Shown here one piece after another: positions 19,313 to 35,739 of a DNA stretch of 64,000 nucleotides. The DNA is from Streptomyces sp. RPT161 (GTDB taxonomy: Bacteria; Actinomycetota; Actinomycetes; Streptomycetales; Streptomycetaceae). Under the pieces are notes generated by a model. That model did no database searches. It saw only the letters and a list, made by a program, of their open reading frames with translations, and had not been told where the DNA came from. The DNA lies in the NCBI RefSeq assembly GCF_027533845.1, contig NZ_JAPZVN010000022.1, forward strand, positions 47,907-111,906. The letters run 5' to 3'. The translations under genes were made by a program, and so were the position numbers. Positions within the stretch are counted from its first letter, which is position 1. Each line of letters opens with the position of its first letter.

Positions 19313-19697
19313 CCGGTCCAGCGCCCCTCGCGGGGCGCTGACCTGTGAGATCGCGTCCCGGCTGGTTGCTTCGGCCGGGGCGCTTTCCCTTGCCCGGGGC
19401 GTCCGCGGGGGTGGGCGGCTCGGCATCCGCCGACGGAGCGGACGCCGGACGGGGCACGCGGGACGGTTCCGCGGCGGCTTCGGCCGCGGCTTTGTCGACT
19501 TCGGGCAGCAGACTCGTGTACGTGTCCGAGGTCAGCGTGATCGTGGAGTGCCGCAGCGTCTCCTTGATCGTGTGAAGATCGCCACCTCCGCCGTGGGTGA
19601 GGGTCGCCGCGACATGCCGCAGATCCCGAAGCGTGATCGGCGGCAGGTCCAACCGCCGCGCCGAAGCCGCCCGCCTACGCTCCACCACTCCCGGCAC
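19287..19697 (-). pseudogene. Truncated tyrosine recombinase (integrase), C-terminal remnant
   Basis: The frame encodes only the C-terminal catalytic half of a phage/AICE-type tyrosine integrase: PPITLRDLRHVAATLTHGGG (LRH box with its Arg), HTIKETLRHSTITLTSDTYTSLLPEVDK (second His/Arg box and the nucleophilic Tyr). The N-terminal arm- and core-binding domains and the first catalytic Arg are missing; upstream sequence shows no matching frame, so the gene is dead. After the recombinase homology ends (about 19480) the frame runs through the tRNA terminator and stops inside tRNA-Lys. It marks the left edge of the accessory island. Confidence 0.82.
19319..19340. terminator. Hairpin after tRNA-Lys
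   Basis: CAGCGCCCC-TCGC-GGGGCGCTG forms a perfect 9-bp stem with a 4-base loop, 7 bases after tRNA-Lys. Confidence 0.75.
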
Positions 19698-21505: not shown

Positions 21506-22515
21506 GGTGCGGCTTCCGGTCGCCCCTGGGACACCGAAGGCGCCCACCAGTCACGGTTGTCGCGGTACCAGGAGACGGTGGCGGCGAGCCCGTCGCGGAA
21601 GTCGTGCCGTGGCCGGTAGCCCAGTTCGCCGCAGACCTTGGAGCAGTCGACGGCATACCTCAGGTCATGGCCCTTGCGGTCCGCCACATGACTGACCATC
21701 TCCCAGCCGGCGTCGCACGCCGCCAGCAGCAGGTCGGTCAGCTCGCGGTTGGTCAGTTCGTTGCCGCCGCCGATGTTGTAGACCTCGCCCGGGCGGCCAT
21801 CACGACGGACCAACTCGACGCCCAGGACGTGGTCGTCGACGTGCAGCCAGTCCCGTACATGGCGTCCGTCTCCGTACAGCGGGACCTTCCGGCCCTGGAG
21901 GAGGCTGGTGACGAAGCGCGGGATGATCTTCTCGGGGTACTGATGCGGTCCGTAGGTGTTGGAGGCGCGCGTCACCCGCACGTCAAGGCCGTGCGTACGG
22001 TGGTACGCCAGGGCCACCAGGTCACTGGCGGCCTTTGACGCCGCGTAGGGCGAGTTGGGTTGCACGGGGGCAGTCTCCGGCCAGGAGCCTTCGGCGATGG
22101 ACCCATAGACCTCGTCGGTGGAGACGTGGACGAACCGGCCGACACCACGGCGAACAGCGGCGGCCAGCAGGGTCTGGGTGCCCAGCACGTTGGTGCGTAC
22201 GAAGTCGGTCGCGTCCTGGATCGAGCGGTCCACATGGGACTCGGCCGCGAAGTGCACCATGTGGTCGTGAGTGGCGGCCAGTTCGTCAACCAGTTCCGTG
22301 TCGCAGATGTCACCGTGGGCGAAGGCGAATCCCGGGTGTTCTCGTACGGCGGCCAGGTTGGCCTGATTTCCCGCGTATGTCAGCCGGTCGAGGACGGTGA
22401 TTGTGACGCTGTCGGCCTGCGGACCGCACAGCAGTGCACGGACATAGGCGGAGCCGATGAACCCCGCCCCGCCGGTGACGAGGATCCTGGTCGGTTCGTT
22501 GCGAGGTGGCTTCAT
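21490..22515 (-). CDS. rmlB: dTDP-glucose 4,6-dehydratase
   Basis: RmlB forms dTDP-4-keto-6-deoxyglucose from dTDP-glucose, using bound NAD. The 341-aa protein has ILVTGGAGFIGSAYVR at the N-terminus, HFAAESHVDRSI, VHVSTDEVYGS with the catalytic Asp-Glu pair, YAASKAASD (Tyr-xxx-Lys) and TRASNTYGPHQYPEKIIP. All are diagnostic of 4,6-dehydratases. The ATG overlaps the rmlA stop by 4 bases (ATGA), so rmlA-B-D form one coupled minus-strand operon. Confidence 0.96.
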   Translation of the reverse strand: MKPPRNEPTRILVTGGAGFIGSAYVRALLCGPQADSVTITVLDRLTYAGNQANLAAVREHPGFAFAHGDICDTELVDELAATHDHMVHFAAESHVDRSIQDATDFVRTNVLGTQTLLAAAVRRGVGRFVHVSTDEVYGSIAEGSWPETAPVQPNSPYAASKAASDLVALAYHRTHGLDVRVTRASNTYGPHQYPEKIIPRFVTSLLQGRKVPLYGDGRHVRDWLHVDDHVLGVELVRRDGRPGEVYNIGGGNELTNRELTDLLLAACDAGWEMVSHVADRKGHDLRYAVDCSKVCGELGYRPRHDFRDGLAATVSWYRDNRDWWAPSVSQGRPEAAPCGGW

Positions 22516-23579
22516 GCGGAGATCTGCGCCTTGCTGTGGTCGCCGAGGACGAGCCGGTGGGCGCGCGGTACGGCGGGCGCGGGCGTCACCTCGACGCTGC
22601 GGCCGATCAGCGATGCCTCGATCCTTCCGACCCCGGTCACGGAGGCGTTCTTGAGCACGATGGAGAACTCGATCTCGCTGTCCTGGATCCGGCAGCCCTG
22701 GGCGATAGAGGTGAACGGGCCGACATACGTGTCAGTGAGGACGCTGCCGGAGCCGATGACCGCCGGGCCCACGATGCGGGAGTGACGTACCGTCGCGCCC
22801 GCGTCGATCCGCACCCGGCCGATGATCTCGCTGGTCTCGTCCACCTCACCGTCCACCCGGGGCTCCAGGGTCTCCAGGACGAGGCGGTTGACCTCCAGCA
22901 TGTCGGCGACGTTGCCGGTGTCTTTCCAGTAGCCGCTGACCTCGGTGGAGCGAAGGTCACTTCCGTGGTCGATCAGCCACTGCAATGCGTGCGTGATCTC
23001 CAACTCACCACGCGCGGACGGCCGGACGGCGCGCACCGCCTCATGGATCGCGGTGCCGAATAGGTAGACGCCAACCAGCGCGAGATCGCTCTTGGGCCGC
23101 TGCGGCTTCTCCTGAAGGCCGACGACCCGGCCGGTGCCATCGAGCTCCGCGACCCCGAACTCGGATGGCCGCGCCACCCTGGTGAGCAGGATCTGCGCGT
23201 CCGGGCGTTGTGTGAGGAAGGTGTCCACCACGTCCGTGATGCCGCCGACCAGAAAATTGTCACCGAGGTACAGGACGAAGTCGTCTTCTCCCAGGAACTC
23301 CCGGGCGATCAGTACCGCGTGCGCGATGCCGAGTGGCGCCCGTTGCTGGATGTACGTGACGGTGATGCCGAATGCGCGGCCATCCCCCACGGCGTTACGG
23401 ATCTCTGCCTCGGAGTCGCCGACGACAATGCCGACATCGGTAATCCCGGCGTCCGCGATCGCTTCCAGACCGTAGAACAGGACCGGCTTGTTCGCGACCG
23501 GTAGCAACTGCTTTGCCGAAGTGTGGGTTATCGGTCGGAGCCGGGTGCCCGAGCCTCCCGCGAGTACCAGGGCCTTCAT
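22512..23579 (-). CDS. rmlA: Glucose-1-phosphate thymidylyltransferase
   Basis: RmlA makes dTDP-glucose from dTTP and glucose-1-phosphate, the first step to dTDP-deoxysugars. The 355-aa product has the nucleotidyltransferase signature LAGGSGTRLRPIT at residues about 6-18, then KQLLPVANKPVLFYGL and YLGDNFLVGGI. A left-handed beta-helix C-terminus (repeated hexapeptides such as IIGRVRIDAGATV and VIGSGSVL) makes it the long actinomycete antibiotic-type form, not the 290-aa housekeeping form. GAGGAG lies about 12 bases before the ATG. It diverges from the RRE gene across a 309-base promoter region. Confidence 0.95.
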   Translation of the reverse strand: MKALVLAGGSGTRLRPITHTSAKQLLPVANKPVLFYGLEAIADAGITDVGIVVGDSEAEIRNAVGDGRAFGITVTYIQQRAPLGIAHAVLIAREFLGEDDFVLYLGDNFLVGGITDVVDTFLTQRPDAQILLTRVARPSEFGVAELDGTGRVVGLQEKPQRPKSDLALVGVYLFGTAIHEAVRAVRPSARGELEITHALQWLIDHGSDLRSTEVSGYWKDTGNVADMLEVNRLVLETLEPRVDGEVDETSEIIGRVRIDAGATVRHSRIVGPAVIGSGSVLTDTYVGPFTSIAQGCRIQDSEIEFSIVLKNASVTGVGRIEASLIGRSVEVTPAPAVPRAHRLVLGDHSKAQISA

Positions 23580-23888: not shown

Positions 23889-24992
23889 ATGCAGGATGTT
23901 TTGCGTCACTTGCATATCTGGGGGCGCGGTAGCGCGGGTCTGGTCGGGGCCACACATGATGTGTCGCCAAGGACGGCCTTTGTAGAGTCGGCTGATTTGC
24001 TGCCGGCTGTGCTCGACAGCGGTCTGTGCGACGGCGAAACCATGGCTTTCTCCCCTTCCGGTGCTGCTCCAACTACCGCTTCGACAGCGGAGGTTGTGGA
24101 ATACGAGGGCTCGTTCATCGCCCCCGGTGACGAGATGTCGGTGGGTGAGGACTTCTTCGTCGAGGTCCAGGACTACGCAGTCGCGCCTTTCCTCGCGATA
24201 GCCGGACCGACCCTGCTCCGCGTGACCGGAGAGAACGACTTCGAGGCATTTCTGCACGATGCCGATCAGGCGCGGGAACGGGGGGCGTTCCTGCCCGCGC
24301 TGGTCCACCCAATGATCCAGCTCGGCGACCTGTGCGCGCTGGGAGGCGCGCATGACTGTGGCGGCCCGCGCCACCGGCTGTTCGTCAACAGCCTCGGTGA
24401 GGTGCGGACCGCGCCACACGGCGCCCTGCTCGGCACTGTGCGGGACGGACTGGAGGGACTGACCGCGGTCTGGTCCTCCATCGAGCGTGCGCCAGGCTCC
24501 GGCTGTCCGGTCTGTCTGGGCCAGGCTGTTCCGACCGCCGTGCTGGAGGCCGCACACCGACAGCGGCCCTGGCTGTCACGCTATCTGCACGCCCTGGACG
24601 CGCTGCGGATGGCGGCCGCACGAGGCCTGACCGAACTGAGGGTGTCCGGTTTCGCCGAGCGCCTGGTGACGACGGGGGACCAGGACGCACCGGCCGTCGA
24701 TCTCACCGTCGCCGGCGCGGAAGCTCCACTGCTGCTGTTCAACCCCGAGACCGCCGTGCTCCACGAGCCGCTCGGCAACCGGCAGTTCCAGCTGTCCATG
24801 GACGCCGCTCGCCTGGTCGAGCTGCTGATGGTCCACGGGGACCATGGCGTGGCGGCAGAGATGGCAACACGGCACCTCGGGCTCGGCCAAGACGCCGCAC
24901 TGAGTGCCGTGGCGCAGGTGGAGAGCCACCTGACGGGCGCCGGTGTGCGGCTGCCTGCGGCACCCGCCGGTATTCCGGCGATCACGGGCTGA
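23889..24992 (+). CDS. Daptide-type RiPP recognition protein (RRE-containing)
   Basis: A 367-aa soluble protein that I assign as the recognition element of a daptide cluster. It probably binds the precursor leaders and presents the C-terminus to the dehydrogenase. The N-terminal part has HIWGRGSAGLVG and the acidic EYEGSFIAPGDEMSVGEDF, features I associate with daptide recognition proteins. Residues about 285-352 (FQLSMDAARLVELLMVHG through VESHLTGAGV) have the helix and strand spacing of a PqqD-like winged-helix RRE. GGGGGAA precedes the ATG. It lies 140 bases upstream of the two precursor genes. The class assignment rests on context plus remembered family features, not an alignment. Confidence 0.75.
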   Translation: MQDVLRHLHIWGRGSAGLVGATHDVSPRTAFVESADLLPAVLDSGLCDGETMAFSPSGAAPTTASTAEVVEYEGSFIAPGDEMSVGEDFFVEVQDYAVAPFLAIAGPTLLRVTGENDFEAFLHDADQARERGAFLPALVHPMIQLGDLCALGGAHDCGGPRHRLFVNSLGEVRTAPHGALLGTVRDGLEGLTAVWSSIERAPGSGCPVCLGQAVPTAVLEAAHRQRPWLSRYLHALDALRMAAARGLTELRVSGFAERLVTTGDQDAPAVDLTVAGAEAPLLLFNPETAVLHEPLGNRQFQLSMDAARLVELLMVHGDHGVAAEMATRHLGLGQDAALSAVAQVESHLTGAGVRLPAAPAGIPAITG

Positions 24993-25076
24993 GCCCGTCC
25001 AAGACCCACGTCCCCGGCTCGGCTGTTGAGTCAGTCATGCCCTGAGGCGTGCGCGCGCACAGCGCGACCTCCCTGC

Positions 25077-25117
25077 TTTCCCGTTTGGAACGGGGAGACC
25101 ACTCACGGGAAATCCCG
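25077..25117 (+). promoter_or_regulatory. Overlapping, mutually exclusive hairpins before precursor 1
   Basis: TTTCCCGT (25077-25084) pairs with ACGGGAAA (25105-25112). The latter also takes part in a second small hairpin CGGGA-AA-TCCCG (25106-25117) ending a few bases before the GGAGG ribosome site of the precursor. The two folds cannot form together. This may stabilise the precursor mRNA or tune its translation. Confidence 0.45.
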
Positions 25118-25131
25118 AAAGGAGGGAAATC

Positions 25132-25308
25132 ATGCAGAACACCATTGAGCTTTCCACGCTCGACCTCGGCATCTCCGAGCTGGAGCCGATGGAGGCCCCG
25201 GGCTTCTGGGACACCGCTGCCGGCTTCGTCACCGGCACCGTCATCGGCGGCGCGGTCGTCGGCGGTAGCGTCTACGGCGGCATCGCGCTCGGCGTCGCCA
25301 TCACCTGA
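25132..25308 (+). CDS. Daptide-like RiPP precursor peptide 1
   Basis: A 58-aa peptide starting MQNTIELSTLDLGISELEPM, with leader motif LDLGISELEPMEAPGFW (residues about 10-26). A glycine-rich, almost uncharged hydrophobic helix follows, ending GVAIT with C-terminal Thr. Daptides derive their dimethyl-propanediamine C-terminus from exactly such a terminal Thr. The core contains several Gly-xxx-Gly pairs suited to a membrane-spanning helix, plus Thr, Ser and Tyr residues that could be glycosylated or used by a YcaO enzyme. Cleavage probably falls around EAP/GFW (inferred). AGGAGGG gives a very strong ribosome site before the ATG. Confidence 0.88.
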   Translation: MQNTIELSTLDLGISELEPMEAPGFWDTAAGFVTGTVIGGAVVGGSVYGGIALGVAIT

Positions 25309-25345
25309 TCGGCCTTTCGGCCCGTATCACGGAAGGAGCGTCCGC

Positions 25346-25534
25346 ATGTACGCAGCGGCCGCCGCGTCTGAGCGCACCGCGCTCAGCGCTCCCGGGCTCG
25401 ACCTGGGTATCTCTGAGCTGGAGCCGCTGGAGGCCCCCGACTTCTGGAGCGGTTTCACGACCGGTCTGACGTTGGGTGCCGCCGGTGGTGCCGCTCTCGG
25501 CACCGGCATCGGGATTGGCATAGCCATCACCTGA
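25346..25534 (+). CDS. Daptide-like RiPP precursor peptide 2
   Basis: A 62-aa paralogue of the upstream peptide. An Ala-rich extension (MYAAAAASERTALSAPG) precedes the same leader motif LDLGISELEPLEAPDFW (residues about 18-34). The Gly/Ala/Thr-rich hydrophobic core ends GIAIT with C-terminal Thr. The leader motif and the final Ala-Ile-Thr are conserved while the core differs, the usual pattern for precursor peptides sharing one set of tailoring enzymes. GGAAGGAG precedes the ATG. It lies 37 bases after precursor 1 on the same transcript. Confidence 0.88.
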   Translation: MYAAAAASERTALSAPGLDLGISELEPLEAPDFWSGFTTGLTLGAAGGAALGTGIGIGIAIT

Positions 25535-25635
25535 CCGGTGAGTAGTTGAATCGCCGGGTTCCGCGACACCGGTCCGCGGAAGGCAGTGCGGAACCCGGCG
25601 CACCGCAAACCACAGCAAGACCTCGGGAGGCACTT

Positions 25636-25845
25636 ATGACAAGCCAGCCAGTCGACAACCAGGGATTCCGCTCACCATTGTTCGTGGCGTCCATCATGTT
25701 CGTCCTGGTGGTGCTCATGGCGCTCTCCCCGTTGGTGCTGAACGGTGGTGCACGGTGGACCGCCCTGACGGTGCTCGTGGTCGTCGAGTTCGGCCTCGCC
25801 GTGCTGATGGGACTGCGCATCGCCCAGTCCAGGAGCGACAGGTGA
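25636..25845 (+). CDS. Small two-helix membrane protein of the RiPP cluster
   Basis: A 69-aa protein with two predicted transmembrane helices (about residues 13-35 and 40-63) joined by a short loop, N- and C-termini polar. No family recognised. GGGAGG precedes the ATG. Its stop overlaps the GTG of the ABC ATPase (GTGA), so it is coupled to the exporter and could be an immunity peptide or exporter subunit; neither role is shown by sequence. Confidence 0.72.
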   Translation: MTSQPVDNQGFRSPLFVASIMFVLVVLMALSPLVLNGGARWTALTVLVVVEFGLAVLMGLRIAQSRSDR

Positions 25846-26576
25846 CGCGTCAGGACCCCGCCCGGTTCGACGGCTTCACCAAGACCTTCGGCACCACCAC
25901 GGCCGTCGAGGATCTGACGTTCGCCCTGCGTTGCGGACGCATCCTCGGACTGCTGGGTTCCAACGGAGCGGGAAAGAGCACCTCGCTCCGGGGCCTGCTG
26001 GGCCTGATCCACCCCACCAGCGGCACCGCGACGGTCTTCGGCGTGCCGTATGGAGAACTCGCCCACCCAGCCCGCCAGGTGGGCGTCAGCATGGACGGCA
26101 TGGGCTTCGTCTCCCATCTGTCCGGCCGCAGAAACCTTTTGATCGCCGCCCGTGCGGCGGATCTGGCCGCCAGCCGGGTGGACGCCGTCCTCGACCAGGT
26201 CGGCCTCACCGACAGCGCCGGGCGCAAGGTCAAGGGCTACTCGACCGGCATGCGCCAGCGGCTGTCCATCGCCGCGGCCCTGCTCGGCGACCCGGAGCTG
26301 CTGGTGCTCGACGAACCGGCCAACGGAATGGACCCGGAAGGCATCCGCTGGCTTCGCACGCTGCTGCGTTCGCTCGCGGACGAAGGCCGCACCGTCCTGG
26401 TCTCCAGCCACCAACTGGCCGAACTCGAACAGACCGTTGACGATGTCGCCGTCCTCCAACGCCGCCTACTGTTCTGCGGTTCGCTGGCACAGCTCACCGA
26501 GGACGGCAGCAGCCGCCTGGAGGAGAAGTTCTTCGAGCTGACCGCAACACCGGTGTCAGGAGCAGCAGTTGCGTAA
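25842..26576 (+). CDS. ABC transporter ATP-binding protein of the RiPP exporter
   Basis: A 244-aa cytosolic ATPase of the drug/bacteriocin exporter type. Walker A is GLLGSNGAGKST (about residues 37-48), the signature is YSTGMRQRL (a common CcmA/NatA variant of LSGGQ), Walker B is LLVLDEPANGMD, and the switch His is in VLVSSHQLAE. The GTG start overlaps the preceding stop. Its stop overlaps the TTG start of the permease, so they form one exporter, probably for the mature peptide or for self-protection. Confidence 0.93.
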   Translation: MTRQDPARFDGFTKTFGTTTAVEDLTFALRCGRILGLLGSNGAGKSTSLRGLLGLIHPTSGTATVFGVPYGELAHPARQVGVSMDGMGFVSHLSGRRNLLIAARAADLAASRVDAVLDQVGLTDSAGRKVKGYSTGMRQRLSIAAALLGDPELLVLDEPANGMDPEGIRWLRTLLRSLADEGRTVLVSSHQLAELEQTVDDVAVLQRRLLFCGSLAQLTEDGSSRLEEKFFELTATPVSGAAVA

Positions 26577-27312
26577 CCAGATCGCCGCCGAGACGCTGAA
26601 GGTGCGTTACAGCAGGTCCCTGCTGTGGCTGCTCGGCATCGGCACCTTCTTCGTCGTGGTCTCCAACCTTGGCCTGATGAGCCAGGGGAGGGGCCGTGTC
26701 GTCGCCGGAACGAGCACCGCGGCGGTGCTCACCCACGACCTGGTCCGTAACCCGTTCGCCTACCTGCTGTTCGTCTCGATGGCGGGCGCGATGGCCGTCT
26801 CTGGTGAGTACCAGAACGGCTACATCAGCCGTTCCGTGCTCCTCAGCGGAGGCCGCAACCGGCTGCTCGCGGCCAAGGCCATCGTTTCCTGCGGTGTGGG
26901 GGCCCTCTTCGGCGCCCTGGCCGTGGTGGTCGGTGTGGCGACCAGTTACGGCGCCCTCTCCTCGATCGGCCGCTCACCTGTTTTCGACCGCGAGACCTGG
27001 CTGATCCTGGGCGGCGTCTTCCTCGTCAACGTGCTCGCCGGGCCATGGGGCACGTTCCTCGGCTGGCTGGTGCGCCACCAGGTCGCCTCAGTGTCTCTGG
27101 TCTTCGTCATGACGATGATGGTCGATCCGGCGTTGCAGCGACTGTTGCCGTCCGTTGGCAAGTACCTGATGACCATCGCGATGAGCAGCGTCTACCGCGA
27201 CGACAAGACCGGGTTGCTGTCCGAACCGATCGCGCTGGTGGTCATCGCCGCGTGGCTGGCGGTCGCGGCGGTCGCCGCCCGCAAGCTGCTGGCGAGCAGA
27301 GACATCACCTGA
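26569..27312 (+). CDS. ABC-2 type permease of the RiPP exporter
   Basis: A 247-aa membrane protein with about six helices, matching the short ABC-2/NatB-type bacteriocin permeases. The amphipathic N-terminus IAAETLKVRYSRSLLWLL and the cytosolic GEYQNGYISRSVLLSGGRNR loop are typical of this family. A TTG start at 26569, preceded by AGGAGC, overlaps the ATPase stop by 8 bases. It pairs with the 25842 ATPase. Confidence 0.88.
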   Translation: MRNQIAAETLKVRYSRSLLWLLGIGTFFVVVSNLGLMSQGRGRVVAGTSTAAVLTHDLVRNPFAYLLFVSMAGAMAVSGEYQNGYISRSVLLSGGRNRLLAAKAIVSCGVGALFGALAVVVGVATSYGALSSIGRSPVFDRETWLILGGVFLVNVLAGPWGTFLGWLVRHQVASVSLVFVMTMMVDPALQRLLPSVGKYLMTIAMSSVYRDDKTGLLSEPIALVVIAAWLAVAAVAARKLLASRDIT

Positions 27313-27377
27313 CCCCAACGGCCGGTCCAGCAGTGCGCCATCGCGTTGGACCGCATGCGAAAGCGATCACGATCACC

Positions 27378-29090
27378 ATGAGAACTGGCGGGCTCGACAA
27401 CCGCACGGACCACTCGGCAACGGACGCCCCAGGTACGCCGGGGAACCGTCCGCTACCGGAGCGTCCGGCCCGGGCGGCCGGGACGGTCATCCACCCGCCG
27501 ATGGAAGGCAGCGCGGACGACGCGCCATGGGTCGTCGTCCGCGCCGACCAGCGATACCTGCGGGTCGGCAGGGACGCGGCCGCACTGCTGCGACTGCTGA
27601 ACGGCAGGCTGGACTGCACCGGTCTGGCCGATGCGCTGGGCGCTCGCTGGACCCCCGCCGACGTACGTTCCGCGCTGCTGGCCTTTGACCGCATGGGCCT
27701 GATCTCGGGCGAGGCGACGGCCGAGGACAGCGCGCGACCGCCTCGGCGGCGACGCGTCAGCTACGCGCCGCCACTCACCGTGCACCTCACACTCGCCGAC
27801 CCGGCTCGCCTGCTCGCCCGGATCCGGCCCCTGGCGCTACGGACCTTCGGACGGGCCGGCCGGATCTGCGCGGCGATGCTCGCGGTATGCGGGGTGTGCG
27901 TGTTGGCCGCCAACTCCACACAGGTCGGATACGCGTTGGGGCATCCTCTGCCGCTTCGCGACTACGCGCTGTTCTTCGGCGCTCTGTTGCTGACCACGGC
28001 CCTGCACGAACTCGGGCACGGCACCGTACTGACCTGCTTCGGCGGCAGACCGAGCCGCCTTGGGATCATGCTGTTCTACCTGACGCCCGCCTTCTTCTGT
28101 GATGTGTCGGACGGCTGGCGACTGCCCCGCCGAGAGCAGCGGGCCTGGACCGCGCTGGCCGGTGTCGCCGTCCAGTGGACGGTCGCGGGCGCGGTGGCCA
28201 GCGGATCACTGCTGGTCCCGTCGGGCGAGCTGGGTGACTGTGCCCTCGCGTTCGCCGCCATGACCTATCTGCACGGGTTGCTGAACCTGATCCCGTTCGT
28301 GAAGTTCGACGGCTACATCGCCTTGATGAGCATGGTCGACATCCCGCACCTGCGCACCAAGGCGATGGACGACGCCCGGCGCTTTGTGGCCAGGATCCTG
28401 TTCGGCGGGGTTTATGAGCGTGAACTGCCGGGTGTCCGCTGGGCGGTTCCCTTCGGTCTGTGCTGTCTGGCGTTCCCGGTTTACCTCGTCGGTACCGCCA
28501 TGTACCTGTGGCTCGGAGTGGCGTTGCGGGCGGGCGTGTTCGGCGCTGTCGCATTGGTCGCACTCCTCGGCTACCTCGCCTGGCGCTTCCTGAACGGCGC
28601 CGTGCGCGTGCTGCGGGAGGCGAGAGCGGCCGGCGCCCGCCCGGTCAGACTCGTCGGCGTGGGTGCCGCCGTGGCCGGCGCCGCCGTGGCGCTGCTCGCC
28701 CTGGTCCAGGTGCCGTACCAACTGGACGGGGGATACATCCGGCAGGGGGACACCGTCGAGGTGCTGCTCCCGGCCGGGGCTGACACCCACGTGCTGCGCC
28801 CCGGTATGCCGGTGAGCTTCAACCGCTCCGGCGTGGGCGGCGGCGCGCGGCTGGCACGGGGACAACTGGACGGTACCGCCGGGCGGGCCGTCTCCGCACC
28901 GGTCGAGGCGTTCCTGCCGGTCCGCGCGGACGCCGCCCGGTTGCCCGCGAACGCCTATCCGGCCACCAGCACCGGAGTTGCGTCGCTGCCGCCCGCAGGC
29001 TCGGCGACGCTGGACGGCGGGAGCCTGCCGCTGGGCCGGTGGATCGTCCAGGTGTACGGCGCACCCGTCGTCCGCGTCCTCACCCGTTGA
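27378..29090 (+). CDS. Daptide-type intramembrane metalloprotease (M50) with RRE-like N-domain
   Basis: A 570-aa membrane protease likely to remove the leader peptide. Zinc motif HELGH is at residues about 210-214, and the second M50 motif NLIPFVKFDGY (Asn...Asp-Gly) at about 303-313. Roughly eight transmembrane helices frame them. Residues about 50-112 (WVVVRADQRYLRVGRD through LLAFDRMGLI) look like a PqqD-type winged helix, so the protease may bind leaders itself. The C-terminal about 100 residues resemble an extracytoplasmic beta barrel-like extension (GDTVEVLLPAG...). The ATG at 27378 has a weak ribosome site, so the exact start is uncertain. Confidence 0.83.
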   Translation: MRTGGLDNRTDHSATDAPGTPGNRPLPERPARAAGTVIHPPMEGSADDAPWVVVRADQRYLRVGRDAAALLRLLNGRLDCTGLADALGARWTPADVRSALLAFDRMGLISGEATAEDSARPPRRRRVSYAPPLTVHLTLADPARLLARIRPLALRTFGRAGRICAAMLAVCGVCVLAANSTQVGYALGHPLPLRDYALFFGALLLTTALHELGHGTVLTCFGGRPSRLGIMLFYLTPAFFCDVSDGWRLPRREQRAWTALAGVAVQWTVAGAVASGSLLVPSGELGDCALAFAAMTYLHGLLNLIPFVKFDGYIALMSMVDIPHLRTKAMDDARRFVARILFGGVYERELPGVRWAVPFGLCCLAFPVYLVGTAMYLWLGVALRAGVFGAVALVALLGYLAWRFLNGAVRVLREARAAGARPVRLVGVGAAVAGAAVALLALVQVPYQLDGGYIRQGDTVEVLLPAGADTHVLRPGMPVSFNRSGVGGGARLARGQLDGTAGRAVSAPVEAFLPVRADAARLPANAYPATSTGVASLPPAGSATLDGGSLPLGRWIVQVYGAPVVRVLTR

Positions 29091-29107
29091 GAAGCGAAGG
29101 AATGGTT

Positions 29108-30244
29108 GTGTCCGCACCCCGAGTGTCGGTGATCTGCCCCACGTACAACCGGGGCCGCGCCATCGTCTCCACCCTGGACTCGGTACGCGCCCAGTCGGTG
29201 CGTGACTGGGAGCTGTTGGTCGTCTCGGACGCGAGCGACGACGACACGGATGAGGTTGTGGCCGGCGTCGTCGCGCGGGACCCCAGGGTCCGGCTGATCC
29301 GCACCCGGCGCTTCGGCCATCCGTCCGGGCCGCGGAACGTGGCGCTGGACCAGGCCAGGGGCGGCACCATCGCCTACATCGACCACGACGACCACTGGAC
29401 GCCCAACCATCTGAGCCGGGTGACCGCTGCGATCGACAGCGGCGCGCGGTTCGTGGCCACCGCGGCGACCCGGGTCCGCCCGTCCGGTGCGGCCGTCCAC
29501 ACCCCACCCGACATCCTGCTGTGCTGGCACCCCGAACTCCAGCTGATGGCCCCGCTGTTCGAACCTTCCCGGGTCGCCCACGAGGCCGGGCTGGCCGAGG
29601 CGGTGGGCGGTTGGCGCGAGTCGCCGGTCGGGCTTGAGGACTGGGACCTGTGGCTGCGATTCGCCGACGCGGGGGTGTGGTGCACCACGCTGATGGAGTC
29701 CACCGTAAGGCTGTTGGACGATCCCGCGACGCGACTGCACCACATGCCCTGCGGCTTCCAACTGGAGATCGCCCGCTTCCCCGACGCCCGAACGGCACGA
29801 GCGGCGTACCGAGCGCTCAAGGACCCGCGCCGGTCGCGGGCACTGCTCGAAGCCTGCCGACAGGACCTGCTGGAGTGGTACGGAGCACTGGCGGACGACG
29901 GTGGACTCGTGCGGCCCCTCGGCTGGCGGCCCGAGCGGCACGAACTCCTGGCGGCCGTCGTCGAGTTGGTGGACGACGCCGCCGACCCCTGGCCGGACCT
30001 CACCTTGGTACGCCGCGACGGCCATGTCTCCCTGGTGCGCGTCCTGCGGTGCATGACCGCCAGGCACGCCGCCCGCGTCGAGGAACTCACCCGCAGGACC
30101 CAGCCGCGCCAGCGCGCGCTGATCGACCAGGTGCTCGCCCCCTTCGTCGGCGCGGGGACCGACACCAGCCCGCCGACGGTGCCCGGCCGTGAGCGCCGCC
30201 CAGCCCAGACGCCCGCATGGCGCGTGGAGGAGATACCAGCATGA
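29108..30244 (+). CDS. GT2-family glycosyltransferase in the RiPP operon
   Basis: A 378-aa cytosolic GT-A glycosyltransferase: VSVICPTYNRGRAIVSTLDSV at the N-terminus, LLVVSDASDDDTDE, then the metal/nucleotide-sugar motif IDHDDHW (about residues 93-99), and a C-terminal helical region. The GTG at 29108 is chosen because AAGGA lies about 7 bases upstream; the ATG at 29102 is too close to that site. Its stop overlaps the methyltransferase start (ATGA). With the rmlABCD genes nearby, dTDP-L-rhamnose is the likely donor and a precursor Ser/Thr/Tyr the likely acceptor (both inferred). Confidence 0.85.
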   Translation: MSAPRVSVICPTYNRGRAIVSTLDSVRAQSVRDWELLVVSDASDDDTDEVVAGVVARDPRVRLIRTRRFGHPSGPRNVALDQARGGTIAYIDHDDHWTPNHLSRVTAAIDSGARFVATAATRVRPSGAAVHTPPDILLCWHPELQLMAPLFEPSRVAHEAGLAEAVGGWRESPVGLEDWDLWLRFADAGVWCTTLMESTVRLLDDPATRLHHMPCGFQLEIARFPDARTARAAYRALKDPRRSRALLEACRQDLLEWYGALADDGGLVRPLGWRPERHELLAAVVELVDDAADPWPDLTLVRRDGHVSLVRVLRCMTARHAARVEELTRRTQPRQRALIDQVLAPFVGAGTDTSPPTVPGRERRPAQTPAWRVEEIPA

Positions 30245-31068
30245 ACCACTCGGCGACCGCGCCCAACCTGCCCGGTCTCGCCGGTGAGATCGCCGCCGCC
30301 CTGCGCGGCTCCCTGACCGTGGACGATCTCTACGGCGACCTCGGAGGCCCGCTCTACCACCAGTTGAGCCAGGGCGACAGCCACGAGGTCCGCGAGATCA
30401 CCGCGGCGTTGCGCGGCATCGAAGGGCCGGTGCTCGAACTCGCCTGCGGCTCAGGGCGCCTCACCCTGCCCCTGCTCGCCGCCGGACACCACGTCACCGG
30501 CGTTGACAACTCCCCATCGCTGCTACGCCTGTTGGCCGAGCGGCTGGACGATCCCCGAGCCGCCCAACTGGCTCGGCGGCTCACCATCGTCGAGGCGGAC
30601 ATCCGGCACCTCGCCATGGACCGCCGTTACGGAGCAGCGCTGCTGGGCACCACCACCGTCGGCCTGCTGTCGCCGGCCATCCGCCCGGAGGTCTTCCGCG
30701 GCGTACGGCGGCATCTGGACCCCGGCGCCCCCTTCGTGCTCACCGTCTTCGACCCTCTCGGTGGACGGGAGTCGGGCCAGGGCGCCGCCAGGCCGGTGGA
30801 GACCACCCGCACGATGACGGTCGGCACCTCGGTGTGCACCCTCATCGACCATGTGACGGCGGACCGGTCGCGCCGCCATGTCGCCCTCTTTCGGGTCGGC
30901 ACGGACCGTGAGCCGTTGCTGCTGACGTCCGAAGTACACCTGGTGACGGCCGCCGAGGTCATCGCCGAACTGGCCGAAGCCGGATTCGCCACCGAAGACC
31001 CACGCCCGGTGCGCGGTGCGACGACCGGCGCCGGCTCAACCCTGATCGTCGCGAGGAACACCGCATGA
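30241..31068 (+). CDS. Daptide-type N-methyltransferase
   Basis: A 275-aa class I SAM methyltransferase: motif I VLELACGSGRLTLPLL (about residues 64-79), acidic post-I VTGVDNS, and motif IV-like GAALLGTTTVGLLS. In daptides this enzyme dimethylates the new C-terminal amine; that role is inferred from context. GGAGGAG lies about 9 bases before the ATG. Start and stop overlap both neighbours by 4 bases. An N-terminal YGDLGGPLYHQLSQGD segment resembles small-molecule methyltransferases. Confidence 0.85.
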   Translation: MNHSATAPNLPGLAGEIAAALRGSLTVDDLYGDLGGPLYHQLSQGDSHEVREITAALRGIEGPVLELACGSGRLTLPLLAAGHHVTGVDNSPSLLRLLAERLDDPRAAQLARRLTIVEADIRHLAMDRRYGAALLGTTTVGLLSPAIRPEVFRGVRRHLDPGAPFVLTVFDPLGGRESGQGAARPVETTRTMTVGTSVCTLIDHVTADRSRRHVALFRVGTDREPLLLTSEVHLVTAAEVIAELAEAGFATEDPRPVRGATTGAGSTLIVARNTA

Positions 31069-32342
31069 GCTTCACAACGCACGACCGCCCGCTGTGGGAG
31101 CTGCTCTCCCCGCCCAGTGCCTTCGGTCGGCCCGAGCGGCGCACGACCGGGGCCCGCGGCGCGTACCTGCGGTACGCCGACGGCTCCGAGCTGTTCGACG
31201 CCACCAGCGGCCTGTGGAACGTCAACCTCGGCTACGGCAACGAGGCCATCGCCGACGCCGTGCACACCGCACTGCGCGAAGCCTCCTACCTGACCCTCTT
31301 CCGCGGCTCCCATGACCACGCGATCGACGCCGCAGCCCGGCTCATCGCCGCGGCGGGACAGGACACCTACCGCCGTGTGGTCTTCTCGACCTCCGGAGGG
31401 TCGGCCAACGACCTGGCGATGAAGCTCGCCCGGCAGTACGCGGCACTGCGCGGCGAGCCGCAGCGGCGTCTGGTGGTGGGGCTCAAGGGGAGCTATCACG
31501 GGCTGACCTACGGTGCCTTCTCGCTGACCGGGGAGGCGCTCGGACAGGGCATGTACGGTGTCGACGTCCGTCAGGTCCGGCACGTCGACCCGCACCGGCC
31601 CGACGACTTCACCCGGTTGATGGCCCATGAGGGCCACAAGGTGGCCGCCGTTGTCTGCGAACCGGTACTCGGCTCGGGAGTTCACCCCGTACCGTCCGAA
31701 CTGCTCGACGCCATGCTCGCGCTCCGCGAGCGGTACGGCTACCTGCTGGTCGCCGACGAGGTCGCCACAGGTTTCGGAAGGACCGGACCGCTGTTCGCGA
31801 GCCACAACTGGGCTGCCCGGCCCGATGTGTTGCTCACCTCCAAGGGCCTGACCAACGGCACCTGCGCGGCCTCCGCCGTTCTGGTCGGCGATCGGGTCTG
31901 CGCGGAGTTCGACCGGCATGACGCCCTCTTCGTGCATGCCGAGACCCAGGCCGGTACCCCGCCGACCTGCGCAGCGATCACCGAGACCCTGCGGCAGTTC
32001 GAGGTGCTCGACGCGCTCGCCCACGGCGGTCGGACCGCCAAGAACCTCGACGGACTCCTCGCCGACCTCGCCGATCGACTGCCCGTCGTCGGCCGGGTCA
32101 CCGGCGCCGGCTGCTTCCGCGGCGTCCACCTCGTCGACCGTGACGGCGCACCCTTCGACGCCGCGGCCGTCCAACGGACCATCACCGCGATCCGGGCCCA
32201 CGGCGCACTCGTCTACCCCGGCCCCGGCTGCGTCCAGGTCATACCCCCGCTGACCAGCACCCCGGCGGAGCTGGAAACACTGAGCACCGCCCTGCACAAG
32301 GGCCTGGCCGACGTCGCGGCCCAGGAAGCCCGGCCACGGTGA
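31065..32342 (+). CDS. Daptide-type class III aminotransferase
   Basis: A 425-aa PLP enzyme of the class III (ornithine/DAPA) aminotransferase fold. Conserved features are the SGGSAND phosphate-binding loop, the DEVATGFGRTG segment with the PLP Asp (about residue 231) and the Schiff-base Lys in LLTSKGLTNG (about 260). In a daptide pathway it converts the decarboxylated C-terminal ketone into a primary amine. ATG overlaps the methyltransferase stop (ATGA) and the stop overlaps the GTG of the dehydrogenase. The amino donor is unknown. Confidence 0.9.
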   Translation: MSFTTHDRPLWELLSPPSAFGRPERRTTGARGAYLRYADGSELFDATSGLWNVNLGYGNEAIADAVHTALREASYLTLFRGSHDHAIDAAARLIAAAGQDTYRRVVFSTSGGSANDLAMKLARQYAALRGEPQRRLVVGLKGSYHGLTYGAFSLTGEALGQGMYGVDVRQVRHVDPHRPDDFTRLMAHEGHKVAAVVCEPVLGSGVHPVPSELLDAMLALRERYGYLLVADEVATGFGRTGPLFASHNWAARPDVLLTSKGLTNGTCAASAVLVGDRVCAEFDRHDALFVHAETQAGTPPTCAAITETLRQFEVLDALAHGGRTAKNLDGLLADLADRLPVVGRVTGAGCFRGVHLVDRDGAPFDAAAVQRTITAIRAHGALVYPGPGCVQVIPPLTSTPAELETLSTALHKGLADVAAQEARPR

Positions 32343-33592
32343 CCACCGCACCCGCACCACCGCAGATTCCCGCCACCTGGTCTCGCCCCACGCTGCTGCA
32401 CGTCGGCGTCGGCAGCGCGCTACGAGCGGTCACCGAAGGAGCCGCAGAAGGCGGTCTGGTGGCGGCCGATGACGGCACCGTGGTACTCGCGGACTCCGCG
32501 CTGCCGCGTGGTCTCGTGCAGCGGCTGGCCGCGGCCTCCGGCGGCGGCCGGATCCTGGACGTCGACGCTGGCGCCCCGGACGCCTCGGACCTGGCCCGGG
32601 CGGAGGCCCTCAGCGGCCAACTGTCCGGCGCCGAGCGCGTCATCGCCGTCGGTGGTGGAACCGTGCTCGACCTGGCCGCCATGGGCCGTCTGCTCACCGC
32701 CGACCCGGATGCCGCGGCCCGCATCCGGCACGGCGGATCGAGGCCTGGGCTTGTCGTCTTCCCCGACGTCCGTCGCCCGGAGCACTGCCCCGAACTCATT
32801 GCCGTTCCCACCACGGTCGGCACGGCGGCGGAGGTCAGTGCGGTGGCCACCACGGTGCTCGGCGGCCACCGCAAACTGGTCATCGCCCCGCTGCTCGCCG
32901 CCGACACGGCCGCGCTTGACCCTTGGACCACCGGGACCCTGCCCCCGACGCTTCTCCGGGAAGGAGTCTTGGAGGCGCTGTTCCGGGTCCTCAACAGCTA
33001 CACGATGGAACCGGGACCGCACTGCCCACCTACCGCGGACGCGGAATCCCTGCACCTACTGGGCCAGTTGGCGGCTGTCGGAGACCACCTGGGCGACGCG
33101 GCAGATGACGCCGCTGTGCGCACTGACGCCGCCCTGCTGAGCGCGCGCACCGTGCTGGGCTGCTCCCAGCTGGGACGCGACCCATTCGCGGGCAAGATCT
33201 GGTACGTGTCCAACGAACTCGCGACGGTGGCCGGTGTACGCAAGATGGTCGCCACCGCGGCCACCGCACCCCATCTATGGCGACGGGCACTCGCCGGTGA
33301 TGGACGTTTCGGCCAGGCGGCACGCATCCGCCGGGCCTGGGAGGCGGTACGCGACAACCTGCCCGGCCTTTCGCCCGACCCGGCCACGGGTCTCCGCGGC
33401 CTCGCCGAGCGCTGGTCCGTGCCACGGTGCCCACGCCCCTCCGTCTCGGCGGCCGCCCTGGCCTCGCGGGCAGTACGTGCGTGGGGTGCCGGCCTCCCCA
33501 TGCTCGGCGCCCTCCGCACCGCTGACCTGCGTTCCCTGTACGCGGACATCCTTGGTGAGACGGGCAGTTCAGAAGGAGACTCCTCGCGTTGA
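32339..33592 (+). CDS. Daptide-type dehydrogenase/oxidative decarboxylase (Fe-ADH fold)
   Basis: A 417-aa protein of the iron-containing alcohol dehydrogenase fold. The dinucleotide motif VIAVGGGTVLDLAA (about residues 101-114) and PTTVGTAAEVSAVATT (about 157-172) are kept. The usual metal-ligand positions are not: the region matching GxDALxH reads GVLEALFR, and where two further His normally occur I see SNELATVAGVRKM. In daptides this family oxidises and decarboxylates the C-terminal Thr to a ketone. Loss of metal ligands fits a changed chemistry, but whether other family members share it I cannot check. GTG start overlaps the aminotransferase stop. Confidence 0.82.
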   Translation: MTTAPAPPQIPATWSRPTLLHVGVGSALRAVTEGAAEGGLVAADDGTVVLADSALPRGLVQRLAAASGGGRILDVDAGAPDASDLARAEALSGQLSGAERVIAVGGGTVLDLAAMGRLLTADPDAAARIRHGGSRPGLVVFPDVRRPEHCPELIAVPTTVGTAAEVSAVATTVLGGHRKLVIAPLLAADTAALDPWTTGTLPPTLLREGVLEALFRVLNSYTMEPGPHCPPTADAESLHLLGQLAAVGDHLGDAADDAAVRTDAALLSARTVLGCSQLGRDPFAGKIWYVSNELATVAGVRKMVATAATAPHLWRRALAGDGRFGQAARIRRAWEAVRDNLPGLSPDPATGLRGLAERWSVPRCPRPSVSAAALASRAVRAWGAGLPMLGALRTADLRSLYADILGETGSSEGDSSR

Positions 33593-34893
33593 TCGACTAT
33601 CTGGCCACCATCGCCCCTGCCACGGGTGTGGTCCGCGGCAGCACGGTCCTGCCTCCCAGCATGCCCACCGAGCCACTGTGGCGGGGGATGATGGAACTCG
33701 CATGGGACGCCGGGCCGGCGCCCGCTGACCGTCCACTGGCCGCCAACGTCGTGGGGGCTTACGGCGTGTCGCGGTCGGACGTCTTCGTCCGTGCCATCGG
33801 AGAGGCGGTCGAGCGGTACGCGCTACGCCCGGCGCCGACGGACGATCCGCTCCACGCGACCCATGCCGCCCTGGGCGCGCCCACTCTGGATTTCGGCCAC
33901 CACGAGACGTCGATGGGCGAACCGACAGTGGCGAGCTGCGAGTTGGCGTGGTACCCCGCTCGCCGACTGAGCGATGGCGTCACCGTACGGGTACCCGCGG
34001 GTCTGGTCGATTTCCCCGCGTCCGATGCCGATGCCGTCGGCTTCGACCCCTCACCGTCCGGGGCAGCCTCCGGCCCTGGCCATCAGGCGGCATTGCGCTC
34101 CGCGCTACTGGAGACCATCGAACGCGACGCGGTCCTGGTCGCCTGGGCCCGCCGCCTGGAACTGCCGCGTGTCGACCTGGGCAGTACGCTGGCGCAACTC
34201 CCGCCGAGCCCTTCACTGACAAGGCTCCGTCGCGCCCTGGACCGGGCGGGCGGCGCCGGGTGCGAACCGATCCTGGCCCAAGTGCCCACGGGCGTTCCGG
34301 GCGTGGTGTGCGCGGTCGGGATCATCGTCGACGGTGCGCAAGACGACGCTCGCCGGCACCCCTCGGCCGCCGTGGGCTGCAAGGCGTCCACTGACCCGGC
34401 GGCAGCCCTGGCGGGCGCGCTGCAGGAGGCGCTCCAGATCCACTCGGTGCTGCGCGTCGTCCGGCACCGGCTGCCCGACGCTCCGGCGCCCGACCCGACT
34501 GCGATCACCGACGACGTGGCCCGCGCCCTCTACTTCGCCTCCGGTGAGGGCGTCGCGGCCGTCGACCGCTGGACCTCCTGCTTCGGCGAGCCGGTCCCGC
34601 TGCGACCGCCAGGGGGAGGCGAGGAGGCGACACTGACCGAGCTGATCGACTCGGTGCACGCGGACGGCGGCCGTCCGCTGGTTGTTGACCTCAGCCACCG
34701 GCTGCCGGATCCGCTGCGGCAAATGGGGTGGGCCGTGGTGAAGGTGATCCCGGACGGATACCAGCCACTACTGGTCAACGAGCAGCGTGCCTTCGTGTGG
34801 AACCGTCCCCGGTTGGCCACCGCCACCCATCGCACCGGACTCACCGCGCATGCGGCCGTCACCGACGCCATACCGCCCCACCCCCTCATCTGA
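33589..34893 (+). CDS. YcaO-domain protein
   Basis: A 434-aa YcaO enzyme, the ATP-dependent backbone-amide activating family. The three ATP/Mg-binding motifs are present: AIGEAVERYA (about residues 69-78), LLETIERD (about 173-180) and GCKASTDPAAALAGALQEALQ (about 263-283). The protein ends IPPHPLI, reminiscent of the Pro-rich C-terminus of azoline-forming YcaOs. The TTG start overlaps the dehydrogenase stop (TTGA), with AAGGAG upstream, so it belongs to the operon. No TfuA and no E1-like partner is visible, so azoline formation using the RRE protein, or an unusual backbone change, is more likely than thioamidation. Confidence 0.9.
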   Translation: MIDYLATIAPATGVVRGSTVLPPSMPTEPLWRGMMELAWDAGPAPADRPLAANVVGAYGVSRSDVFVRAIGEAVERYALRPAPTDDPLHATHAALGAPTLDFGHHETSMGEPTVASCELAWYPARRLSDGVTVRVPAGLVDFPASDADAVGFDPSPSGAASGPGHQAALRSALLETIERDAVLVAWARRLELPRVDLGSTLAQLPPSPSLTRLRRALDRAGGAGCEPILAQVPTGVPGVVCAVGIIVDGAQDDARRHPSAAVGCKASTDPAAALAGALQEALQIHSVLRVVRHRLPDAPAPDPTAITDDVARALYFASGEGVAAVDRWTSCFGEPVPLRPPGGGEEATLTELIDSVHADGGRPLVVDLSHRLPDPLRQMGWAVVKVIPDGYQPLLVNEQRAFVWNRPRLATATHRTGLTAHAAVTDAIPPHPLI

Positions 34894-35203: not shown

Positions 35204-35204
35204 C

Positions 35205-35645: not shown

Positions 35646-35739
35646 GCACCGTTCGAGGAAGCCCTGTGCCAGATTGCGCGCAGGCCCCCTTGGACATGCC
35701 GCGGGTCTGCGCCCGCTACTCGCCTTCGCTGTCGGTGTC

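What the first reader, a model, noticed from the sequence alone, without database searches (positions are those of the whole stretch)
23889..34893. Daptide-type RiPP cluster with added YcaO and glycosyltransferase
Seen: two precursors ending in AIT, an RRE protein, ABC exporter, M50 protease, methyltransferase, class III aminotransferase and Fe-ADH-fold dehydrogenase, i.e. the full enzyme set of the daptide class known from Microbacterium. In the same coupled operon are a GT2 glycosyltransferase and a YcaO protein. I know of no characterised daptide carrying sugar plus a YcaO-made backbone change, so the product may be a new hybrid RiPP.
Basis: partly seen in the sequence, partly recalled or inferred. 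Interest (0 to 1): 0.95.

Follow-up and report, generated by a model that had tools for sequence, protein, structure and literature searches.

The report
Daptide cluster predicted to rhamnosylate tyrosine
An actinomycete genome carries a complete daptide gene cluster together with genes for a YcaO enzyme, a glycosyltransferase and dTDP-rhamnose synthesis; its product is predicted to be a peptide pair with reshaped (likely imidazoline) ends, one member of which likely also carries a sugar on a tyrosine.

Summary
Window 23889-34893 is a daptide cluster: DapB, P, M, D, C and both precursors score above NCBIfam's daptide cut-offs. The YcaO is no mystery: it is 50% identical over full length to a Streptomyces azureus YcaO, taken to be the enzyme shown in 2025 to make a C-terminal dimethylimidazoline (PMC12338566). 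GT plus YcaO is not unique: 11 of 35 GT-bearing daptide clusters examined have both.

New here is the sugar. (1) All four dTDP-rhamnose genes lie just upstream, in the same variable block beside a tRNA-Lys. (2) The GT belongs to a daptide-linked GT family in which the two GT2 enzymes of the cacaoidin cluster nest; cacaoidin carries rhamnose on tyrosine. (3) All 33 GT-bearing clusters with precursors found have a Tyr 9-16 residues from the peptide's C-terminus, against 3 of 30 without the GT; no other residue compares. So the GT is most likely a tyrosine O-glycosyltransferase with Tyr25 of the DapA1 core as acceptor; DapA2 has no Tyr. Rhamnose is the likely but less certain sugar. Nothing is shown biochemically.

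The parts
19240..19314 (+). tRNA-Lys; left edge of the variable block
   Evidence: ARAGORN; the flank shared with both other held genomes of the genus ends at 19315
20007..20621 (+). rmlC, dTDP-4-dehydrorhamnose 3,5-epimerase
   Evidence: PF00908 196.7 bits
20579..21547 (-). rmlD, dTDP-4-dehydrorhamnose reductase
   Evidence: TIGR01214 272.6 bits, cut-off 224
21490..22515 (-). rmlB, dTDP-glucose 4,6-dehydratase (one of three copies over the cut-off in the genome)
   Evidence: TIGR01181 415 bits, cut-off 365
22512..23579 (-). rmlA, glucose-1-phosphate thymidylyltransferase
   Evidence: TIGR01208 440 bits, cut-off 320
23889..24992 (+). DapB, RRE partner of the oxidative decarboxylase
   Evidence: NF041823 338 bits, cut-off 150
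25132..25308 (+). DapA1 precursor; predicted core 25201-25305 (35 aa, GFWDTAAGFVTGTVIGGAVVGGSVYGGIALGVAIT); predicted sugar acceptor Tyr25 of the core at 25273-25275
   Evidence: NF041808 26.1 bits, cut-off 25; ORF; Tyr association
25346..25534 (+). DapA2 precursor; predicted core 25439-25531 (31 aa, DFWSGFTTGLTLGAAGGAALGTGIGIGIAIT), no Tyr in the core
   Evidence: NF041808 25.8 bits, cut-off 25
25636..25845 (+). small predicted membrane protein, function unknown
   Evidence: ORF with a ribosome-binding-like stretch; weak PF07332 match below cut-off
25842..26576 (+). ABC exporter ATPase (DapT1-like)
   Evidence: PF00005
26569..27312 (+). ABC-2 permease (DapT2-like)
   Evidence: PF12730
27378..29090 (+). 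DapP, intramembrane M50 leader protease
   Evidence: NF041824 440 bits, cut-off 300
29102..30244 (+). GT2 glycosyltransferase, predicted peptide tyrosine O-glycosyltransferase
   Evidence: PF00535; family and tree with the cacaoidin-cluster GTs; model mean pLDDT 91.7; GT-A fold neighbours
30241..31068 (+). DapM, N-methyltransferase
   Evidence: NF041820 221 bits, cut-off 175
31065..32342 (+). DapD, class III aminotransferase
   Evidence: NF041821 560 bits, cut-off 450
32339..33592 (+). DapC, Fe-ADH-fold oxidative decarboxylase
   Evidence: NF041822 304 bits, cut-off 300
33589..34893 (+). DapY, YcaO predicted to form the C-terminal imidazoline
   Evidence: PF02624; 50% identity over full length to the S. 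azureus YcaO P0132; PHPL near the C-terminus invariant in the 13 aligned sequences

Best explanation
The window holds a daptide cluster (two precursors, DapB, C, D, M, P and an ABC exporter) with a DapY-type YcaO, a GT2 glycosyltransferase and an adjacent rmlABCD set, and it likely makes a two-peptide daptide in which the YcaO is predicted to close a C-terminal imidazoline and the GT is predicted to put a 6-deoxyhexose, probably L-rhamnose, on Tyr25 of the DapA1 core. Steps, all inferred from characterised relatives: DapB binds the leader and, with DapC and NAD+, oxidatively decarboxylates the C-terminal Thr to an aminoacetone end; DapD transaminates it from lysine; DapM methylates once; DapY cyclodehydrates the secondary amine onto the preceding amide to give 3,4-dimethylimidazoline, or DapM methylates again to give the dimethylamine end. 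RmlA, B, C and D make dTDP-L-rhamnose and the GT transfers the sugar to the tyrosine hydroxyl of DapA1; the DapA2 core has no Tyr and would stay unglycosylated. DapP cleaves after ELEP[ML]EAP and the ABC proteins export the pair. The order of glycosylation relative to the other steps is not known.
For: Daptide core: NCBIfam daptide models above cut-off for DapB, P, M, D, C and both precursors. YcaO: 50% identity, full cover, to a S. azureus YcaO (P0132), taken by species name to be the characterised SaDapY; PHPL end shared; chemistry in PMC12338566. GT belongs to the pathway: overlapping stops; 31 of the 40 best GT loci in named genomes hold daptide genes, 0 of the other 40 kept; in 394 genomes of the window's family the GT family (E<=1e-60, five candidates scored per genome) occurs in 8 genomes, 5 of them among the 21 with DapB. 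Acceptor: Tyr 9-16 residues from the C-terminus in 33 of 33 GT+ clusters with precursors and 3 of 30 GT- clusters; in that region the next residue is G at p=0.046; family survey alone 5 of 5 against 1 of 16; after collapsing clusters at 70% DapD identity 10 of 10 against 2 of 10, p=0.0004. Three Arthrobacter-type GT+ clusters whose precursors were first missed carry VVGGGLIYGGIAIGVAIT or VVGGGLVYGGIAIGVAIT, close to the window's VVGGSVYGGIALGVAIT, each with a second peptide whose core lacks Tyr. Chemistry precedent: the window GT is 40% and 39% identical to the two GT2s flanking caoA in S. cacaoi, which nest inside the GT family (48-row clade 100/100); cacaoidin's Tyr carries rhamnose (PMC8068269). 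Sugar: full rml set adjacent; two further rmlB copies in the genome; no rml match in this slot in both other held genomes of the genus; rmlA+rmlB near the GT in 10 of 32 GT+ clusters, 0 of 16 GT-.
Against: No biochemistry. The cacaoidin GT assignment is itself a proposal of its authors. Tyr does not imply GT: 13 of 30 GT- clusters have a Tyr past core position 5; 9 of these come from one family and have it at position 6. By that looser measure other residues are also somewhat enriched with the GT (K p=0.009, F 0.015, D 0.018). The 9-16 window was set after the first data were seen, before the last survey. Tree-controlled contrasts are few: 3 independent pairs on supported branches, same direction in 1 to 3 of 3 over 200 random pairings (2.6 on average) and never opposite, not enough for significance. 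Sugar identity is weaker: the close GT relative in L058 sits with an aminotransferase, a C-methyltransferase and an rmlC-like gene, pointing to another deoxysugar there; G448, G463 and G509 have the GT without rml matches in the fetched stretch. The structure search ranks UDP- and GDP-sugar enzymes above the TDP-sugar ones. DapC passes its NCBIfam cut-off by only 4 bits. In S. azureus the YcaO acted on three of four precursors (PMC12338566), so an end here may stay dimethylamine. That P0132 is the very SaDapY, or lies in a daptide cluster, was not checked.
Confidence: 0.6

Rival explanations
1. The GT glycosylates the peptide, but on Ser or Thr (or a core Trp as in NAI-112), and the Tyr is conserved in GT+ clusters for another reason, such as membrane placement or pairing of the two peptides.
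For: Ser, Thr and Trp occur in the window cores; Cys/Ser/Thr sugars (glycocins) and an N-linked Trp sugar (NAI-112) are known in other RiPPs (passages of PMC8068269). GT+ clusters mostly have exactly two precursors (26 of 30), so Tyr could belong to the two-peptide design.
Against: 9-16 residues from the C-terminus, Ser and Thr are about equally common with and without the GT (27/33 against 25/30; 24/33 against 26/30), Trp is rare (3/33 against 5/30), Tyr is 33/33 against 3/30. The relatives in the tree with a known product belong to the cacaoidin cluster, whose sugar is on Tyr.
Confidence: 0.15
2. The sugar on the peptide is not rhamnose: the GT takes another NDP-sugar made elsewhere in the genome and the rml set serves another pathway, placed here by chance.
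For: A close GT relative sits beside a different deoxysugar cassette and many GT+ clusters have no rml match in the fetched stretch (19 of 32; G448, G463, G509). GT-A folds similar to the model use UDP-, GDP- and TDP-sugars.
Against: All four rml genes are adjacent, the genome has two further rmlB copies, and the block has no counterpart in the two relatives. rmlA+rmlB are beside the GT in 10 of 32 GT+ and 0 of 16 GT- clusters.
Confidence: 0.3
3. The YcaO forms azolines or another backbone change inside the core instead of the C-terminal imidazoline.
For: It matches the TOMM cyclodehydratase model SagD (TIGR03604, 114 bits, below its cut-off 219).
Against: 50% identity over full length to a S. 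azureus YcaO taken to be the one with shown imidazoline activity (PMC12338566); no Cys in either core; the RRE protein is DapB, the partner of DapC.
Confidence: 0.07
4. Ordinary daptide: the YcaO or the GT is inactive on these peptides and the products carry only the dimethylamine end.
For: The YcaO of S. azureus left one of four peptides as dimethylamine (PMC12338566). Expression was not tested.
Against: Both genes are open, overlap-coupled in the operon and have close relatives in other clusters.
Confidence: 0.1

Closest known systems
Daptides, mpa cluster of Microbacterium paraoxydans (PMC10036551)
   Same: Precursors with ELExMEAP leader end and C-terminal Thr; DapB/C/D/M/P and ABC exporter; all present here
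   Different: mpa was chosen as a cluster with only the primary enzymes; here YcaO, GT2 and rmlABCD are added
YcaO daptides: azuritides of Streptomyces azureus and the Thermobifida fusca cluster (PMC12338566)
   Same: DapY homologue, 50% identical over full length to a S. azureus YcaO; predicted same C-terminal imidazoline
   Different: 'glycosyl' does not occur in that paper's main text; here GT and rml genes are present
Cacaoidin (lanthidin, class V lanthipeptide; PMC8068269)
   Same: Two GT2 enzymes homologous to the window GT (39-40%), rmlA/B/D beside them, rhamnose on a core tyrosine
   Different: Different peptide class and backbone chemistry; disaccharide with 6-deoxygulose; has a further GT4
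   Same: Daptide set plus the same GT family; L069, L070 and L085 also carry rmlA, B, C and D; G448, G463 and L091's contig also carry DapY and a peptide ending YGGIAIGVAIT or YGGIAIGIAIT
   Different: In the fetched stretches no cluster other than the window has GT, DapY and all of rmlABCD together

Membership tests
Daptides | Precursor with ELExMEAP-type leader end, aliphatic core and C-terminal Thr | tested here: met
   Both precursors
Daptides | DapB (RRE fusion) plus DapC oxidative decarboxylase | tested here: met
   NF041823 and NF041822 above cut-off, the latter by 4 bits
Daptides | Class III aminotransferase DapD and methyltransferase DapM | tested here: met
   NF041821 and NF041820 above cut-off
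Daptides | Intramembrane protease DapP and ABC exporter | tested here: met
   NF041824 above cut-off; PF00005 and PF12730. The RRE fused to DapP was not tested separately
Daptides | Amine-derived C-terminus of the product | not testable with these tools
   Needs mass spectrometry
YcaO (imidazoline) daptides | YcaO of the daptide-associated group | tested here: met
   50% identity, 100% cover to S. azureus YcaO P0132; relatives lie in daptide clusters; the published similarity network was not rebuilt
YcaO (imidazoline) daptides | Canonical PxPxP motif near the C-terminus | tested here: inconclusive
   S. azureus P0132 ends PHPHPLI, which holds PHPHP; the window ends PPHPLI, with PHP but no full PxPxP; PHPL is invariant in the 13 aligned sequences
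Cacaoidin-type tyrosine GT2 | Homology and common clade with the cao GT2s | tested here: met
   39-40% identity; 48-row clade 100/100 against 7 outgroup GT2s
Cacaoidin-type tyrosine GT2 | Tyr in the core of the cognate precursor | tested here: met
   DapA1 Tyr25; 33 of 33 GT+ clusters with precursors
Cacaoidin-type tyrosine GT2 | Transfer of dTDP-L-rhamnose to Tyr | not testable with these tools
   Needs enzyme assay
TOMM / azoline RiPPs | E1-like or ocin-ThiF partner and Cys-bearing core | tested here: not met
   No such partner in the scans of the cluster's proteins, and the RRE protein is DapB; no Cys in either core

The most novel reading that the evidence does not exclude
Daptide glycosyltransferases and the cacaoidin GT2s form one family of RiPP tyrosine O-glycosyltransferases that has moved between peptide classes with deoxysugar cassettes; the window encodes its best-equipped daptide member, making a two-peptide daptide with a Tyr-O-rhamnosyl, imidazoline-ended DapA1 and a sugar-free, imidazoline-ended DapA2.
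Probability: 0.45. Interest if true: 0.75.

Novelty: new variant of a known kind. Interest (0 to 1): 0.55.

Why it matters
Glycosyltransferases in daptide clusters have been listed, but in the papers and passages seen they are given no substrate. The precursor-GT covariation gives a testable acceptor (Tyr), the tree gives a testable chemistry (cacaoidin-type tyrosine rhamnosylation), and the operon gives exact product masses. If right, it would yield a family of enzymes that glycosylate tyrosine in ribosomal peptides, rare in natural products, and combinable with the tolerant daptide C-terminal enzymes.

Tried and rejected
Azoline or thioamide YcaO reading: rejected on identity to the S. azureus YcaO and lack of Cys. 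TOMM E1 reading of the RRE protein (my first impression from its CxxC region): rejected by the NF041823 hit. First assignment of rmlC to ORF 19827-20441 (-), used: wrong, no Pfam hit; the true rmlC is 20007-20621 (+) and is used from then on. Promoter and terminator scans gave nothing above shuffles. Independent-pairs test on the DapD tree: too few supported pairs to decide. Literature: searches for a glycosylated daptide or a RiPP tyrosine glycosyltransferase were read as listings; only PMC12338566, PMC10036551 and PMC8068269 were opened; two reviews in the listings (PMC10373908, PMC7616364) and the other daptide-mentioning papers were not opened; supplements could not be opened.

Result partly against: the last survey (family of G396) was run under a written prediction that clusters without the GT mostly lack a mid-core Tyr. 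Under the loose criterion (any Tyr past core position 5) it failed: all 9 new GT- clusters, from one family and 8 of them from one genus, have Tyr at position 6. Under the 9-16-from-C-terminus criterion none has. The only GT+ cluster of that survey (G1125b) is on a contig already in the set (L091); its precursor, found, has the Tyr. The class-level set alone is small: 3 of 3 GT+ against 2 of 5 GT-, p=0.18.

Rows dropped before counts: of the 32 GT+ clusters, five had no precursor by the first pattern; three (Arthrobacter types) were recovered, two (Frankia canadensis on a 4.5 kb contig, Patulibacter) stay out. Hits below the DapB cut-off (G441, G669; G862, G939, G1027, G1057) were not fetched; G1125b was below it too but was fetched. 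L061, L073, L084 (GT at a contig edge or on a short contig), L086 and L087 (no daptide set) and L075, L076, L079, L080 (no daptide genes) were not in the table. L038 (lone DapB) was left out. SID5910 lacks DapD in the fetched stretch and is absent from the collapsed tests. In L093 (S. misionensis) the GT matches in two pieces and may be interrupted; it was counted as GT+. Some GT- calls rest on stretches cut by contig ends (L029, L034, L040, L044, G554).

Full report
What is there. The stretch 23889-34893 encodes, on one strand, the complete daptide set: DapB, two precursors, a small membrane protein, an ABC ATPase and permease, the M50 protease DapP, a GT2 glycosyltransferase, DapM, DapD, DapC and a YcaO protein. 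NCBIfam's daptide models are exceeded by DapB, DapP, DapM, DapD, DapC and both precursors. From the GT on, successive genes overlap by four bases.

Divergent from dapB lie rmlA (22512-23579), rmlB (21490-22515) and rmlD (20579-21547), with rmlC (20007-20621) facing them: the complete dTDP-L-rhamnose pathway. The genome has three rmlB genes over the family cut-off, so this set is not the only one. In the two other held genomes of the genus the left flank is shared up to window 19315, one base past a tRNA-Lys (19240-19314), and the right flank from 36006 or 36037; between them those genomes carry other sequence with no match to the daptide or rml proteins. So rmlABCD and the daptide operon sit in one variable block, possibly inserted at the tRNA. 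I made no dedicated search for an integrase.

The YcaO. Its relative P0132 is a YcaO of Streptomyces azureus, 50% identical over the full length; I take it by species name to be SaDapY and did not check its surroundings. Dommaraju et al. 2025 (PMC12338566; abstract, section 5 parts 1 and 2 and passages read) showed that SaDapY and TfDapY close a 3,4-dimethylimidazoline at the C-terminus from the singly methylated diamine, in competition with a second methylation. Window and P0132 both end in PHPLI, and PHPL is invariant in the 13 aligned sequences; P0132 has a full PxPxP (PHPHP), the window does not. I infer the same reaction here.

Is the GT part of the pathway? The scan of named genomes kept 80 loci of 525 confirmed. 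Of the 40 best, 31 hold daptide genes and 9 do not, three of these nine on a short contig or at a contig edge; of the other 40 none does. In a sample of 394 genomes of the window's family, 21 have DapB and 8 have this GT family at E<=1e-60, 5 of them among the 21. Of the other three, two (G155, G216) have the GT beside rmlA and rmlB and one (G321) beside neither; their surroundings look like peptide-synthetase clusters by eye, without a family search. GT and DapY occur together in 9 of 32 GT+ clusters and in 2 of 3 further ones, so the window's combination recurs.

What does the GT modify? I compared the predicted core peptides of GT+ and GT- clusters. In the family survey alone, a Tyr 9-16 residues from the C-terminus is present in 5 of 5 GT+ and 1 of 16 GT- clusters (any Tyr past position 5: 5 of 5 and 2 of 16). 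Over all 63 clusters with precursors it is 33 of 33 against 3 of 30 (p = 8e-15); scanning all 20 amino acids in that region, the next best is Gly at p = 0.046. Collapsing clusters with DapD identity of 70% or more leaves 10 of 10 against 2 of 10 (p = 0.0004). The exceptions are G235, G613 and G739, which have such a Tyr without the GT in the fetched stretch. A looser count (any Tyr past core position 5) gives 33 of 33 against 13 of 30, because nine clusters of one other family have Tyr at position 6. With the loose measure, before the last survey, K, F and D were also weakly enriched (p 0.009 to 0.018) against 4e-10 for Tyr. The tree of DapD needs 9 changes of GT and 8 of Tyr; only 3 independent contrasts lie on supported branches, the same way in 1 to 3 of 3 over the random pairings and never opposite. 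A striking case: three Arthrobacter-type clusters with GT and DapY, for which no precursor had been found, turned out to encode a peptide ending VVGGGLIYGGIAIGVAIT or VVGGGLVYGGIAIGVAIT plus a partner with a Tyr-less core, almost the window's DapA1 tail (VVGGSVYGGIALGVAIT) and its DapA2. In the genome G1125 one cluster has the GT and this Tyr; the other has no GT and only the position-6 Tyr. The window's nearest DapD relative, G095, has DapY but no GT in the fetched stretch, and none of its five cores has a mid-core Tyr.

A chemical precedent. In Streptomyces cacaoi NBRC 12748 the GT profile finds, besides the daptide GTs, two GT2 genes 10 kb apart. The cacaoidin core peptide, as printed in PMC8068269, is encoded between them, with rmlA, rmlB and rmlD homologues nearby. 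They are thus very likely Cao8 and Cao16. The window GT is 39% and 40% identical to them, and in a tree of 55 GTs they nest within the family of daptide GTs (inside a 46-row branch supported 95/91), which as a 48-row clade is separated from seven outgroup GT2s at 100/100. Cacaoidin's tyrosine carries rhamnose extended by 6-deoxygulose, and its authors propose that Cao8 and Cao16 attach the rhamnose (PMC8068269, passages and section 5 part 1). The AlphaFold2 model of the window GT is confident (mean pLDDT 91.7); its structural neighbours are GT-A enzymes (the term is recalled), among them SpsA with dTDP and RmlT with TDP-rhamnose, but UDP- and GDP-sugar enzymes rank higher, so the fold does not fix the donor.

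Which sugar? rmlABCD next door argues for L-rhamnose. Against certainty: a cluster with a close GT relative carries other deoxysugar genes (L058: epimerase, DegT aminotransferase, rmlC-like and C-methyltransferase), and only 10 of 32 GT+ clusters have rmlA and rmlB in the fetched stretch, 13 of 32 any rml gene, against 0 of 16 GT-; G448, G463 and G509 have none.

Verdict. A real daptide cluster of the YcaO subtype with a dedicated GT. Known parts: daptide class (2023), YcaO imidazoline (2025), presence of GTs in such clusters (listed 2023, PMC10036551 section 6). New here, as inference: the tyrosine acceptor, the kinship with cacaoidin's GTs, and the complete rhamnose set in the same variable block. 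No listing shows a glycosylated daptide; these cover only the open-licence library, and most listed papers were not opened. Gene labels such as DapT1 follow the literature naming.

Noticed in passing
L038 (G338:C4; 9210-10436 in the locus), with L151 and L152: A lone DapB-like gene, 53% identical to the window's DapB (closer than the other DapBs of that survey), with no other daptide gene matched in the 58 kb fetched around it; ORFs that look like transposases by eye follow it.
   Followed up: partly
L055/L082 (Streptomyces sp. ISL-1), L057/L064 (A108), L059/L072 (S. cacaoi): Daptide clusters with two GTs of different subclades, both precursors with Tyr; may build a disaccharide as in cacaoidin.
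   Followed up: partly
L058, 12273-16260: Deoxysugar cassette beside a daptide GT with aminotransferase, rmlC-like and C-methyltransferase genes: perhaps an amino, C-methyl deoxysugar on a daptide.
   Followed up: partly
L075, L076, L079, L080, G155, G216: GT of the same family with rmlA and rmlB and, by eye, MbtH-like and SARP-like genes: perhaps a rhamnosylated non-ribosomal peptide.
   Followed up: no
window 19240-19315 and 36006: The slot between a tRNA-Lys and the right flank holds different sequence in the three held genomes of the genus.
   Followed up: partly
window 34925-35938: Short partial matches to FAD-binding and short-chain dehydrogenase domains and to repeats elsewhere in the genome: probably decayed gene fragments right of dapY.
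   Followed up: partly
window 25636-25845: Small predicted membrane protein between the precursors and the ABC ATPase, no family match over cut-off.
   Followed up: no
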